Position numbers and translations under genes: made by a program. A stretch of 64,000 nt of DNA, from the NCBI GenBank assembly GCA_019637335.1, contig JAHBVV010000036.1, forward strand, positions 1-64,000, given 5' to 3'. Of this stretch, positions 10,640 to 20,455 are shown one piece after another (the first letter of the stretch is position 1; every line of letters begins with the position of its first letter). Source of the stretch: Candidatus Hydrogenedentota bacterium (GTDB lineage Bacteria > Hydrogenedentota > Hydrogenedentia > Hydrogenedentales > JAEUWI01). Below the pieces are notes generated by a model. The model saw only the letters and a list, made by a program, of their open reading frames with translations, had not been told where the DNA came from and did no database searches.

Positions 10640-11926
10640 TTACGGCGATTTCTTCTTATCGGCCTCCAGCATTTTCTTGAGCTTCTGGACCTTCGGCACG
10701 GCGTTGAACTGGATGTAGGGCTGGTTCGGGTTGTGCTTCAGGTAGTCCTGGTGGTAGTCCTCGGCGGTAAAGAATTCCGTGAGGGGCTCGAGGGTGGTGA
10801 CGATGGGACGGCTGAACTTGCCGGAGGCGTTCAGCTGGGCGATGTAGGCTTCGGCGCGGGCTTTTTCTTCTTCGTCCTGGTAGAAGATGGCCGAGCGGTA
10901 CTGCGTGCCGGTGTCGGGTCCCTGGCGGTTGAGGGTGGTGGGGTCGTGGGTCGTAAAGAAGACCCGCAGCAGCTGGCCGTAGGTGAGTTTGGCGGGGTCG
11001 TAGATGATTTCGATGGCCTCGGCGTGGCCCGTGGTTCCAGTGGTGACGGCCTTGTAATTGGCGCGGGCCGGGTCGCCGCCGGTGTAGCCGGAGATTACGG
11101 CTTTCACACCGTCGAGCTCCTCGAACACGCCCTCGGTGCACCAGAAGCAGCCGCCGGCGAAGATGGCTCTGGCCTCGCCCGGCTCATTGGCCAGGGGCAC
11201 ATCCTTCTCCGGTAGCGGAAGCCAGGGGGTGTCGTCCTTTTGGTCTTTTGCGGGGGTATCGTTCGCGGCCACGGCCACCTCCTCGATAAGGGTGTTCAGC
11301 TGGTCCTTGCTGGTGAAGCCCAGCGCCTCGGAATTCATGCAATAGCGCAGGCCGGTCGGGTCGGGGCCGTCGTTGAAGACGTGGCCCAGGTGCCCGCCGC
11401 ACCGCGCGCAGAGGGTTTCGGTGCGCACCATGCCATAGGAGGTGTCCTCCTCGTCGACGATGTTTTCCTTCGCGATGGGCGCGTAGAAACTCGGCCAGCC
11501 CGTGCCCGATTCGAACTTCGTGTTCGATTCAAACAGCGGCAGGTTGCAGCCGGCGCAGGTGTAGACGCCCTCATCCTTGTTTTTGAGCAGGGCGCCGGTG
11601 AAGGCGCGCTCCGTGCCCTTTTCCCGGAGGATGTGGAATTGCGCAGGGGTGAGCTCCTTCTTCCACTCCGCGTCGCTGCGGAATTTCGCCGGAATGCGCA
11701 CGGGATCGCCGAGGGTTCCGTCCGCGCTGAAGAGGCGCACGGTGACGTCGCCCTGGACGTCCGTATTCTTCACGGAGCGTTTGCTGTGGGAGCCCTCACT
11801 CCCGCGGACAGGTTCGCCCGCGGCGCCCGCCGGGGTGGAGGCCCCGGGCAGGAAGTACTGGGCGGCGGCAAAGGCCAGTACGGCGAGTCCCGCGCCGATG
11901 GTAAAGAAGGTGTTTGATCGTTTCAT
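10640..11926 (-). CDS. msrAB: Bifunctional peptide methionine sulfoxide reductase MsrB-MsrA, membrane-anchored or exported
   Basis: The 428-residue product has an N-terminal hydrophobic segment ([20 protein letters not shown]), then an MsrB domain (about 60-215) and an MsrA domain (about 255-415). MsrB shows the zinc-type CAGC and CARCGG pairs and the catalytic RYCMNSEAL. MsrA has the GGCFWC active site and YHQDYL. MsrB reduces the R- and MsrA the S-epimer of methionine sulfoxide. The order B-A is the reverse of the Neisseria PilB arrangement (thioredoxin-A-B). The N-terminal helix places it outside the membrane, protecting envelope proteins from oxidation. The start at 11926 is preferred because it begins the signal/anchor segment; an earlier in-frame ATG at 12001 adds non-conserved residues. 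Confidence 0.92.
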
Positions 11927-12060
11927 GGCGTTGTTTCCATGGGGTTGTGTGGAGCGCTGCATTCCATGCACTATTCTATATTCCGTGCGCCGGAGGGTCA
12001 ATGTCGGGAAGGGTTTGCGGCTTGGACCGCGCCCCCCCGGCCATGGGCGGCTGGTAATAC

Positions 12061-16558: not shown

Positions 16559-16606
16559 TCAGGGGAGATTCGCTCCAAATACGGTCAGAATCTCTATGGT
16601 GGTTCA
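16559..16606 (-). pseudogene. Detached C-terminus of the ParE-like toxin after a TGA codon
   Basis: Reading through the toxin stop codon gives T-T-I-E-I-L-T-V-F-G-A-N-L-P before the next stop. ParE/RelE-family toxins normally end in such a beta strand (IEILTVFHGAR-like). With it the protein would be about 95 residues, the family norm. So the TGA at 16604-16606 looks like a nonsense mutation near the end of a once longer toxin. Confidence 0.65.
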
Positions 16607-16846
16607 GATTACCCGGTACAGGAAGCTGTGCTTTCGGTAGACAACCCGCCGGATGCCCTCCCCATACTCCGGTGTCGGCGTCCCGGAATCTGGAAACTCG
16701 CAAAGTAGTCTCTCCAGCCAGTCCTTGATGTTTTGGAGGTACGCCACAACGAACGGCGCGGAAAGGTGTTGTTCGTAAAGATAGTCTGCGATCTCTTCCA
16801 TGCGCTCGCGGGCTCGGGGAGAAAAAACTATCTGTCGCTCATTCAT
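16604..16846 (-). CDS. ParE/RelE-superfamily toxin, probably C-terminally truncated
   Basis: The 80-residue product has the ParE-type fold signature: FSPRARERMEEIADYLYEQHLSAPFVVAYLQNIKDWLERLLCEFPDSGTPTPEYGEGIRRVVYRKHSFLYRVI. Family members poison gyrase (ParE) or cleave mRNA on the ribosome (RelE) and are neutralised by the partner encoded just upstream. The two genes overlap by eight bases (16839-16846), the standard antitoxin-toxin order. The frame stops after YRVI, before the last beta strand that the family normally has; the missing strand is still readable downstream. The toxin may therefore be inactive or weakened. Confidence 0.8.
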   Translation of the reverse strand: MNERQIVFSPRARERMEEIADYLYEQHLSAPFVVAYLQNIKDWLERLLCEFPDSGTPTPEYGEGIRRVVYRKHSFLYRVI

Positions 16847-17162: not shown

Positions 17163-17435
17163 TCAAGTCGAACACGAATCTGAAAGAACCGATATGTGAC
17201 GCGCCCGCTTGCCAACCTGCCCGGGTCGCGTCCCCGCCACGGTGGGCGTAGTGTCTGGCGCAACGGGATGTTCGCCGGATTCAATTCGCTCGGCGAGCAC
17301 GCGCAGCGCCAGGGCTTCCGCCTGTGCAATGGCCGCTTCCCGGGTTGGGCCGTATTTCAGCACGCCGGAGAGTTCGAGGACTTCGGCTATCCAGCGTCCA
17401 TCGTCCTCTTGTTCGGTTTCGATCGTGAAATTCAT
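17163..17435 (-). CDS. hicB: HicB-like antitoxin, orphan
   Basis: The first about 55 residues match the HicB antitoxin fold: MNFTIETEQEDDGRWIAEV, then ELSGVLKYGPTREAAIAQAEALALRVLAERIESGEHP. Members bind the HicA mRNA interferase. The remaining 35 residues (PTVAGTRPGQVGKRARHIS...) are not HicB-like and may reflect a frameshift or loss of the original end. No HicA gene is seen on either side. The next 110 bases leftward are open in several frames but give no recognisable HicA. It may be a relic or a solitary regulator. Confidence 0.7.
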   Translation of the reverse strand: MNFTIETEQEDDGRWIAEVLELSGVLKYGPTREAAIAQAEALALRVLAERIESGEHPVAPDTTPTVAGTRPGQVGKRARHISVLSDSCST

Positions 17436-17589
17436 GTGGCAATCTCGCTAATCGAGTGTTCGTTCCCATTCCGGCAGGGATGCCAGCGCTCCATGCAGTT
17501 TACACCCAGGGCAATCGCATTTAAACCTGATCGTGGCGCATGGGCGTATGCTTGTGTCGATTTGGATGCTTTAATCAAGGAAAGTGAGC

Positions 17590-17639
17590 GTGTTGGAGCG
17601 CCGGCATCCTTGCCGGCAGAGATGCCGGCGCTCCAACAC
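17590..17639. repeat. Long perfect hairpin of a 'GGAGCGCCGGCATC' type repeat
   Basis: GTGTTGGAGCGCCGGCATC (17590-17608) and its exact complement GATGCCGGCGCTCCAACAC (17621-17639) form a 19-bp stem with a 12-base loop that can itself pair (TTGCCGGCA). No T-tract follows. It resembles the palindromic intergenic repeats seen in Planctomycete and Verrucomicrobia genomes. Confidence 0.75.
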
Positions 17640-17828
17640 GTTCCTTCTCCATTAGTTCTCCGTGGTTCGTATGGCGATTGGCCCGTACACGAAGTTTAAA
17701 TGTGCTTGCCTTGCGTATACACCAACTTGGCACGGCGGGCCGCCGCGGGGTAGGATAGCGTCCCCGCGGGTTGGGCGTTGTGCCCGGCGTGTTGCGGGTT
17801 CCCTTTTTGCCGCTGAAATCGAGCCCCC

Positions 17829-20387
17829 ATGTCCGATACCCTTGGAGAAAACATCCTTACGCGCTTTACCCCCTCGGCGGCGCGGTCGGTGCAGGAGGCG
17901 ATTGAGGGGACGGGCGGGCGCGAGGTGTTTTTCGCGGGGAGCGTGGATGGACAGGGGCGGGTGGCGCAGGTTCGGGTGTGCGCGCGGGGGCATGAGTCGG
18001 CGGTGCCGGCGCTGTTTGAGTCGCTGGAGGTGCGGGATGTGGTGATCCACAACCACCCGTCGGGGAACCTGGCGCCGAGCGAGGCGGATGTGCAGCTGGC
18101 GTCGATGTACAGCGCGCACGGGCACGGGGTGTACATTGTCGATAATGACGTGACGCGGGTGTATGTGGTGGTGGAGCCGTTTCTGCCGAAGCAGGTGACG
18201 CGGCTGGACCCGCTGGAGCTCCGGGGGATGTTTTCGCCGGGGGGCGCGGTGGGGCGGACGGTGCCGGGCTTTGAGGTGCGCCCGCAGCAGGTGCGGCTGA
18301 TGGAGGCGGCGGCGGCGGCGTTCAACGAGGGGAAGATCGCGGTGGTGGAGGCGCCCACGGGGGTGGGGAAGACGTTTGCGTACCTGCTGCCGGCGGCGCT
18401 GTGGTCGCGGCGGAACAAGGAGCGGATCGTGATCAGCACGCGGACGATCAATCTCCAGGAGCAGATTATCGACAAGGATATCCCGCTGATCCGCAAGGTG
18501 ATCAACGAGCCCTTGGAGGCGTGTCTGGTGAAGGGGCGGGGCAATTACCTGTGCCTGCGCAAGCTGGAGCGGGCGCTTTCGGAGGCGCAGCTGTTTGACG
18601 ACGAGACCACGCAGCACCAGTTGGCGGCGATCGGGGAATGGGCGGAGAAGACGGAGGACGGGAGCAAGACCGATCTGCCGTTCATGCCCGGGCGCGAGGT
18701 GTGGGAGCGGGTCTGCTCGGAGTCGGACAGTTGCAGCATGGGCCGCTGCCCGGACACCAAGCGCTGTTTCGTGGGGAAGGCGCGGCGGGAGATGGGCAAG
18801 GCGGACCTGCTGGTGGTGAACCACCACATGCTGTTTTCCGACATCGCGATCAAGCAGGAGGCGGGTGACTTCACGGCGCAGGCGGTGCTCCCGCACTACA
18901 AGCGGGTGATTTTCGACGAGGCGCACAGCATCGAGGACTCGGCCACGGAGTATTTCGGGATGTCGGCGACGCTCCTGGGGGCGAAGGCGTCGTTCGGGCG
19001 CTTCATCCGCACCGAGCGGGGCCAGGAGCGCGGGCTGCTGCCGACGATCGTGGTGATGTTGATGAAGGAGTGCCCGCAGCTGAGCGTGGACGATTTCCAC
19101 ACGATCCAGAAGCTGGTGGAGGAGCGCATCAAGCCGGCCCTTTCCGAATGCCGGGAGAACGCCGAGGATATTTTCGTCGCGCTTCGGGCTCTCGCGTCGC
19201 TGCGCAGCGGCCAGATCGGGCGGGACATCAAGTGGCGCCTGACGGAGGACGCCCTGCGCGATCCGACGCTGCGGCAGATCCACAACGAGCGGGTCGTGCC
19301 GTTTGCCGACGCCGTCACGAAGCTGATGCAGGACGTGCAGACCCTGCTGCGCCGCCTGCGGGCGATCCCGCCGCGCGACGACGGGGAAGAGGCGCCGCTG
19401 GTGGCGGAGCGCGCGCAATTGCAGGCCTACGCAAACCGTGTCGAGCGCGTCGCCAACGCGCTGCTGGAGACGACGAGCGAGGAGATCCAGGAGAACTCGG
19501 TGCGCTGGATCGAGGTGGACGCGCGGAACGAGCAGTTTGTCCGGGTGGCGCGGTGCCCGCTTGAAGTGGGGGCGCCACTCGCGGAATGGGTCTACGGCAA
19601 CCTGGACACGGTGCTGATGACGTCGGCGACGCTTGCGGTGCAGCGGGAATTTGGGTACCTTTTCCAGCGGTTGGGCCTTGATCAGGTTCGTCCGGAGCGG
19701 ATCGTGTCCGCGATTCTCGATTCCCCCTTCGACTACCGCGAACAGGCGATGCTGTGCCTGCTCAGCGACGTGGTGGATCCCAGCGATCGCGGTTTTCTGG
19801 ACGATTCGGTGGAGGGGATACGGCGCGCGCTCGCGATCTCGCGGGGGCACGCGTTTGTGCTGTTCACGTCGTTCTACGCGCTCGACCACGCGTACAAGCG
19901 CCTGGAGGGGGAACTGCGGCAGGCCGGCATTACGCCGCTGCGCCAGGGCGACGCGGGCCGGAGCCAGTTGCTCGACCGCTTCCGGGCCGATACCGCGAGC
20001 GTGCTGTTCGCGACGGACAGCTTCTGGGAAGGGGTGGACGTTGCCGGGGATTCGCTGCAGTGTGTTATACTCCCGAAATTGCCTTTTCGCGTGCCCACGG
20101 AGCCCATCCAGCAGGCCCGCGCCGAGGCCATCGACGCCCGGAACGGCAACGCGTTCATGGCCTATTCGGTGCCCCAGGCGGTCATCAAGTTCCGGCAGGG
20201 TTTCGGCCGCCTGATACGGCGGCGATCGGATCGCGGGGCCGTGGTGGTGCTCGACCAGCGGGTGCTTACGAAGCGCTACGGCCGGGTCTTTCTGGAATCC
20301 CTCCCGCCGATGCAGATTATCCGCGGGGACCGTGACGCGGTGTTCGAGGCCATGGCGCAGTTCTTTCATCCCGCGGATGGGGAGTAA
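17829..20387 (+). CDS. Fusion of a RadC-like JAB/MPN domain to a DinG/XPD-family helicase
   Basis: 852 residues. Residues 1-115 carry a JAMM-type motif: E32, then H74-N-H76-PSGNLAPSEA-D87, as in RadC-like JAB domains. From about residue 145 to the end is a DinG/XPD superfamily 2 helicase: Walker A EAPTGVGKT (173-182), candidate iron-sulfur cysteines C242, C296, C302, C307, the DEAH box at 363-366, and the C-terminal helicase motifs ATDSFWEGVDV and QGFGRLIRR. DinG unwinds DNA 5' to 3', including R-loops and damaged structures. The usual N-terminal partner in Gram-positive DinG is a DnaQ-like exonuclease, so a JAB domain is unusual. If active, the zinc site would be a peptidase or nuclease-like module in DNA repair. 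The next gene starts 68 bases downstream. Confidence 0.9.
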   Translation: MSDTLGENILTRFTPSAARSVQEAIEGTGGREVFFAGSVDGQGRVAQVRVCARGHESAVPALFESLEVRDVVIHNHPSGNLAPSEADVQLASMYSAHGHGVYIVDNDVTRVYVVVEPFLPKQVTRLDPLELRGMFSPGGAVGRTVPGFEVRPQQVRLMEAAAAAFNEGKIAVVEAPTGVGKTFAYLLPAALWSRRNKERIVISTRTINLQEQIIDKDIPLIRKVINEPLEACLVKGRGNYLCLRKLERALSEAQLFDDETTQHQLAAIGEWAEKTEDGSKTDLPFMPGREVWERVCSESDSCSMGRCPDTKRCFVGKARREMGKADLLVVNHHMLFSDIAIKQEAGDFTAQAVLPHYKRVIFDEAHSIEDSATEYFGMSATLLGAKASFGRFIRTERGQERGLLPTIVVMLMKECPQLSVDDFHTIQKLVEERIKPALSECRENAEDIFVALRALASLRSGQIGRDIKWRLTEDALRDPTLRQIHNERVVPFADAVTKLMQDVQTLLRRLRAIPPRDDGEEAPLVAERAQLQAYANRVERVANALLETTSEEIQENSVRWIEVDARNEQFVRVARCPLEVGAPLAEWVYGNLDTVLMTSATLAVQREFGYLFQRLGLDQVRPERIVSAILDSPFDYREQAMLCLLSDVVDPSDRGFLDDSVEGIRRALAISRGHAFVLFTSFYALDHAYKRLEGELRQAGITPLRQGDAGRSQLLDRFRADTASVLFATDSFWEGVDVAGDSLQCVILPKLPFRVPTEPIQQARAEAIDARNGNAFMAYSVPQAVIKFRQGFGRLIRRRSDRGAVVVLDQRVLTKRYGRVFLESLPPMQIIRGDRDAVFEAMAQFFHPADGE

Positions 20388-20455
20388 CGCATGAATCCGG
20401 CATCTGAAGCTGTATGTGGCGGGGCCGTGGGACGCCCCGCGGCGGACCGGCGCGC

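What the first reader, a model, noticed from the sequence alone, without database searches (positions are those of the whole stretch)
17829..20387. JAB/MPN metalloenzyme domain fused to a DinG-type helicase
A full JAMM motif (E32, H74, H76, D87) precedes a complete FeS helicase of the DinG/XPD family. RadC and DinG are both linked to DNA repair, but their direct fusion is not something I know as described. Suggests a repair enzyme in which a zinc site acts next to the unwinding fork.
Basis: partly seen in the sequence, partly recalled or inferred. Interest (0 to 1): 0.7.

Follow-up and report, generated by a model that had tools for sequence, protein, structure and literature searches.

The report
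RadC-type metal domain on DinG helicase
This gene encodes a DNA-unwinding helicase with a small zinc-enzyme domain fused to its front; the combination was already catalogued in 2025 as 'RadC-like DinG' with no known function, and here it proves to be the only helicase of its family in nearly every member of one bacterial phylum, with its metal site kept intact.

Summary
Window 17829-20387 (+) encodes an 852-residue protein with a RadC-like JAB domain (E32, H74, H76, S84, D87; an exact HxH-x10-D JAMM spacing) in front of a complete Fe-S DinG/YoaA helicase. The claim that this fusion is undescribed is wrong. It is the published 'RadC-like DinG' subgroup (Cheng 2025, PMC11981726), and RadC-DinG/RAD3 fusions had earlier been used to argue that RadC is a nuclease (PMC5512222). 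Its function is still untested. What I add: (1) the gene is in 62 of 68 genomes of the host phylum (Candidatus Hydrogenedentota), and is the only helicase of this family in the 20 genomes checked; (2) the JAMM residues never vary there, and within the genus the JAB domain changes more slowly than the helicase; (3) a separate true RadC and no HolC are present; (4) a LexA box derived for the phylum lies before lexA and recA but not before this gene, so it is probably not SOS-induced; (5) a Fusobacterium homologue keeps the domain but has lost all four metal residues. Most likely: a constitutive 5'-3' helicase whose N-terminal metal site hydrolyses a substrate on the same DNA. Nuclease versus peptidase is undecided.

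The parts
17829..20387 (+). RadC-like DinG gene, 852 aa plus stop
   Evidence: homologues in 62/68 genomes of the phylum
17862..18179 (+). N-terminal RadC-like JAB/MPN+ domain (about residues 12-117)
   Evidence: Pfam PF04002; AlphaFold2 model pLDDT 88; PDB match RadC 2QLC E 2.3e-5, then JAMM deubiquitinases
17922..17924 (+). E32, JAMM glutamate
   Evidence: invariant
18048..18056 (+). H74-N-H76, JAMM histidines
   Evidence: invariant
18078..18089 (+). S84 to D87 of the JAMM motif
   Evidence: S84 and D87 invariant
18246..20378 (+). Fe-S DinG/YoaA-type helicase (about residues 140-850)
   Evidence: NCBIfam YoaA 582 bits and DinG 485/414 bits; full model best PDB match EcDinG 6FWR E 7.7e-42
18369..18374 (+). 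Walker A K181-T182 (EAPTGVGKT)
   Evidence: K181 invariant in 35-sequence alignment
18552..18767 (+). Fe-S cysteines C242, C302, C307, C313 (span)
   Evidence: C302, C307, C313 invariant and C242 nearly so; all four kept in Fusobacterium
17436..17828 (+). upstream intergenic stretch, no LexA box of the phylum's type
   Evidence: against lexA/recA controls

Best explanation
It is a RadC-like DinG: the sole XPD/DinG-family helicase of its host, vertically inherited and probably expressed independently of LexA. The helicase core moves 5'-3' on single-stranded DNA and opens blocked or branched replication and repair intermediates, as YoaA and DinG do. The N-terminal JAMM domain holds a catalytic zinc and hydrolyses something carried on the same DNA. 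By its position, its RadC kinship and the exonuclease of ExoDinG, I think a nucleic-acid substrate (strand end, flap or modified nucleotide) is likeliest, ahead of a DNA-bound protein. Shown here: domain make-up, intact helicase and metal residues, constraint on both domains, phyletic pattern, no LexA box. Inferred: helicase polarity and substrate from the family; zinc and hydrolysis from the motif. The nuclease over peptidase choice is a weak inference.
For: JAMM residues invariant in about 37 distinct homologues. Within the genus dN of the JAB domain is 0.04-0.12 against 0.08-0.17 for the helicase, so the metal domain is kept at least as strictly as the motor. All helicase and Fe-S residues are intact. 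Single copy and only PF13307 helicase in 20 genomes; 62/68 genomes of the phylum. A separate true RadC gene is in most of the same genomes, so the fused domain is not a stand-in for RadC. SaDinG carries a real exonuclease at the same N-terminal place, with ssDNA contacted by both motor domain 2 and the exonuclease, and ExoDinG is also not LexA-regulated, like this gene. RadC is reported to lack the ubiquitin-tail groove and to be fused to nucleic-acid proteins.
Against: No JAMM enzyme is known to me to cut nucleic acid; those characterised are (iso)peptidases, and after RadC the structural matches are mostly deubiquitinase-type. The Fusobacterium homologue has lost the metal site but kept the domain, so in at least one lineage the domain works without catalysis. 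No partner gene points to a substrate; neighbours are pgi, a TPR protein and a two-component pair.
Confidence: 0.42

Rival explanations
1. The JAMM domain is a peptidase or isopeptidase that removes protein bound or crosslinked to DNA in the path of the helicase, a bacterial counterpart of DNA-protein crosslink proteases.
For: Every JAMM enzyme with known chemistry that I know of cleaves peptide or isopeptide bonds; PDB matches after RadC are BubCD, CSN5, Rpn11 and PfJAMM1; deletion of S. aureus ExoDinG sensitises to mitomycin C and formaldehyde, so DinG-type helicases meet such lesions.
Against: Its closest JAB kin, RadC, is reported to lack the groove for a ubiquitin tail. The fused domain is minimal (about 106 residues). 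No ubiquitin-like gene was seen nearby, though I did not search the genome for one.
Confidence: 0.25
2. The domain is mainly a non-catalytic docking or DNA-guiding module; the metal, where present, is structural or a relic.
For: In Fusobacterium vincentii the domain is a true homologue (19.7 bits, best of 2000 shuffles 1.5) yet E32, H74, H76 and D87 read S, R, T and E while the helicase stays intact. pExoDinG is a published parallel of an inactivated N-terminal enzyme kept on a DinG.
Against: In Hydrogenedentota all JAMM residues are invariant and the domain changes more slowly than the helicase, which suits an active site. Only one Fusobacterium sequence was available, and its place in the tree is unresolved.
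Confidence: 0.22
3. It is a YoaA orthologue working at the clamp loader through HolC, and the N-terminal domain is incidental.
For: Best NCBIfam match is YoaA (582 bits).
Against: The score is under the YoaA cut-off of 680. HolC is found in 0 of 60 relatives with the control ringing in E. coli and Caulobacter.
Confidence: 0.05

Closest known systems
RadC-like DinG (Cheng 2025, PMC11981726, section 3.8; model protein from Desulfuromonas soudanensis)
   Same: N-terminal RadC-like domain with E-H-H-D, YoaA-like four-domain Fe-S helicase, no HolC in the genome
   Different: Host is Candidatus Hydrogenedentota; whether the paper's Table S1 includes this phylum is not known to me (it was not read). 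No direct sequence comparison with the Desulfuromonas protein was possible here.
RadC (PF04002; structure 2QLC)
   Same: JAB fold, HNHPSG...PS..D motif, E before the first long strand; best PDB match
   Different: Fused domain scores 22-37 bits against 130-150 for true RadC in the same genomes. In my reading of the alignment the RadC 'PR' arginine and the 'DH' histidine are replaced (A61, N106), and R53 is invariant instead (R49 nearly so).
YoaA
   Same: Nearest named helicase family by score
   Different: Below the family cut-off; no HolC; extra JAB domain; no LexA box
ExoDinG (S. aureus DinG, 8ZEF/9II8)
   Same: Catalytic domain fused at the same N-terminal position of a DinG helicase; not LexA-regulated
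   Different: DEDDh exonuclease instead of a JAMM domain
JAMM/MPN+ peptidases (PfJAMM1, Rpn11, CSN5)
   Same: JAMM metal site
   Different: Act on ubiquitin-like tails; not fused to a helicase

Membership tests
RadC-like DinG | N-terminal RadC-like domain on a DinG-like helicase | tested here: met
RadC-like DinG | Conserved E, H, H, D centre | tested here: met
RadC-like DinG | Intact motor motifs and four Fe-S cysteines | tested here: met
RadC-like DinG | No HolC homologue in the genome | tested here: met
   0 of 60 relatives, controls ring
RadC-like DinG | C-terminal alpha7 helix in motor domain 2 | tested here: inconclusive
   The full model shows a C-terminal helix 835-846, but I could not align it to the published alpha7
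RadC proper | NCBIfam RadC equivalog score over cut-off | tested here: not met
   21.7 bits against 180
RadC proper | Pfam PF04002 gathering score | tested here: met
   25.7 against 22.1 bits
YoaA | NCBIfam equivalog cut-off and a HolC partner | tested here: not met
   582 against 680 bits; no HolC
ExoDinG | N-terminal DEDD exonuclease domain | tested here: not met
   No exonuclease domain matched in the N-terminal part
JAMM/MPN+ metalloenzyme | E ... H-x-H-x10-D metal motif on a JAB fold | tested here: met
JAMM/MPN+ metalloenzyme | Zinc bound and hydrolysis shown | not testable with these tools
   needs purified protein
SOS-regulated dinG/yoaA | LexA box in the promoter | tested here: not met
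   box STGAA-N6-TTCAG before lexA (9/11) and recA (12/15 with at most 1 mismatch), but 1 of 48 loci of this gene with at most 1 mismatch

The most novel reading that the evidence does not exclude
The protein is a helicase-coupled JAMM metalloprotease that strips covalently bound proteins from DNA ahead of the replication machinery, a bacterial DNA-protein crosslink repair enzyme in one polypeptide, which in Fusobacterium has decayed to a non-catalytic form.
Probability: 0.17. Interest if true: 0.75.

Novelty: new member of a known kind. Interest (0 to 1): 0.33.

Why it matters
RadC is one of the commonest bacterial proteins without a known biochemical activity, and its fusion to a helicase is one of the few hints about its substrate. 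A phylum in which this fusion is the only helicase of its family, with a strictly kept metal site and no LexA control, plus a natural metal-dead version in Fusobacterium, gives a clean active/inactive pair for testing what the domain does.

Tried and rejected
Novel architecture: rejected, it is published. Mobile or phage origin: a viral scan and a phage search found only helicase-part matches, and the locus sits in a partly conserved chromosomal neighbourhood. Anti-phage system: PADLOC matches are generic DinG/Csf4 helicase matches, and the CRISPR-associated Csf4 model is far below its cut-off (96.6 against 400 bits). SOS induction: tested with a box derived from the phylum's own lexA, checked on recA, and not found. 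Wider phyletic range: no fusion with the JAB profile in 195 genomes of the phylum of a Myxococcota record (two weak hits in frames of 228-291 aa, too short to be fusions) or 132 of the Zixiibacteriota one, the latter without a positive control. Desulfuromonas could not be reached. One origin for Fusobacterium and Hydrogenedentota forms: the tree leaves it open. The original paper behind the nuclease hypothesis was not read; it is cited through PMC5512222.

Full report
OBSERVATION. The ORF at 17829-20387 (+) is intact and encodes 852 residues. Pfam places RadC-like JAB PF04002 at residues 31-98 (25.7 bits, cut-off 22.1), DEAD at 160-216 and Helicase_C_2 at 665-827. NCBIfam gives YoaA 582 bits (cut-off 680) and DinG 485 and 414 bits, all under their cut-offs.

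HOST AND DISTRIBUTION. The nearest named records are Candidatus Hydrogenedentota MAGs. The gene is found in 62 of 68 genomes of the phylum, typically once per genome, as a frame of about 850-1000 aa where contigs are complete. Four genomes of one family (f7) lack it. In 20 relatives the C-terminal helicase family PF13307 occurs at most once per genome and always at this gene, so this is their only helicase of the XPD/DinG type. One search shows a separate, true RadC in most of these genomes (130-150 bits, against 22-37 for the fused domain). HolC, the YoaA partner, is absent from 60 of 60 with working controls. A JAB-profile search gave no fusion in 195 genomes of the phylum of a Myxococcota record or 132 of that of a Zixiibacteriota record.

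CONSTRAINT. E32, H74, N75, H76, S84 and D87 are invariant in 30 sequences, in a 14-row alignment and in a 19-row alignment; overlap removed, that is about 37 distinct genomes. Within the genus, dN in the JAB domain is 0.12, 0.08, 0.08 and 0.04 in four comparisons, against 0.14, 0.16, 0.17 and 0.08 for the helicase; dS is near saturation, so I compare dN only. The metal domain is therefore kept at least as strictly as the motor.

STRUCTURE. The JAB domain alone models at mean pLDDT 88. Its best PDB matches are RadC 2QLC (E 2.3e-5), then BubCD, CSN5, Rpn11 and PfJAMM1; TM-scores are moderate (0.4-0.6). The whole protein models at 86.8, pTM 0.79, with EcDinG 6FWR as best match (E 7.7e-42) and SaDinG ExoDinG next.

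REGULATION. I derived the phylum's LexA box from lexA upstream regions: CTGA-N8-TCAG in 9 of 11, against at most 3 in 50 shuffles. The same box with at most one mismatch lies close to the recA start in 12 of 15 readable cases. In the host genome the exact box has 5 sites, none for the reversed control. Upstream of this gene, 400 bp in 48 loci (about 37 genomes), there is one match with at most one mismatch, at chance level, and none near the gene in the window. So the gene is probably outside the LexA regulon, unlike E. coli dinG and yoaA, and like the ExoDinGs of Staphylococcus and Bacillus.

NEIGHBOURHOOD. In many relatives the order is RadC-like DinG, pgi (my reading of its sequence), a TPR membrane protein, a MerR-type response regulator; the window has no pgi at this place. 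No neighbour suggests a substrate.

A METAL-DEAD RELATIVE. A Fusobacterium vincentii record (filed as a plasmid but 2.1 Mb, so apparently a chromosome) encodes a homologue aligned over query residues 12-832. Its N-terminal domain scores 19.7 bits with the JAB profile, against 1.5 for the best of 2000 shuffles, and E32, H74, H76 and D87 read S, R, T and E, while K181, D363 and the four Fe-S cysteines are kept. A profile comparison also aligns it along its length (E 1.1e-4, probability 56). This is one sequence, and the helicase tree does not resolve whether it shares the fusion event. It parallels the published pExoDinG, an inactivated exonuclease kept on a DinG. I have not seen it described, but the review's supplementary table was not read.

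WHAT IS KNOWN. Cheng 2025 (PMC11981726, section 3.8) defines RadC-like DinG, lists the same four residues, models Zn, notes YoaA likeness and the absence of HolC, and states that no research has been done on it. The 2017 polyvalent-protein paper (PMC5512222) reports that RadC-DinG/RAD3 fusions had led to the hypothesis that RadC is a nuclease, and that RadC is unlikely to have the ubiquitin-tail groove. The window protein meets the subgroup's features that I could test.

MECHANISM. A 5'-3' Fe-S helicase core is inferred from family and intact motifs. Zinc binding and hydrolysis by the JAMM site are inferred from invariance. ExoDinG shows that a catalytic domain at this place can share a strand with motor domain 2. 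I therefore favour action on the same DNA: nuclease-like 0.42, peptidase on DNA-bound protein 0.25, non-catalytic docking 0.22. The Fusobacterium case is the strongest evidence against a purely catalytic role; the constraint in Hydrogenedentota is the strongest evidence for one.

VERDICT. Real, correctly read, but a new member of a described and uncharacterised subgroup. Interest is moderate to low.

Noticed in passing
L119:4980-7448 (Fusobacterium vincentii NZ_CP084075.1): Homologue with a degenerate JAB domain: all four JAMM residues replaced, helicase and Fe-S residues intact. The gene before it is a DUF1456 protein. The record is filed as a plasmid but is 2.1 Mb.
   Followed up: partly
L124-L137 (lexA) and L148-L164 (recA), own-genome sites L143-L147: LexA box of Candidatus Hydrogenedentota is STGAA-N6-TTCAG; one exact site in the host genome lies near a weak RecA-like (possibly ImuA) frame and an apparent Y-family polymerase frame (L145).
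   Followed up: partly
window 20388-20413: Relatives carry pgi (glucose-6-phosphate isomerase) between this gene and the TPR protein; the window has only a 26-base gap. Whether pgi lies elsewhere in the genome was not tested.
   Followed up: no
window 16604-16846 and 17163-17435 (-): A ParE-type toxin ORF (PF05016) and a small HicB-like/DUF7387 ORF (below cut-off); no partner antitoxin was looked for.
   Followed up: no
window 10640-12001 (-): SelR (MsrB) and PMSR (MsrA) domains in one protein, a common fusion.
   Followed up: no
L043:6001-8581: The homologue is split by an apparent frameshift in this MAG (probably an assembly error or a pseudogene).
   Followed up: no
genomes G012, G020, G025, G030 (family f7): One family of the phylum has no match to this protein at all, in genomes of 3.1-3.4 Mb; three of the four are over 90% complete.
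   Followed up: no
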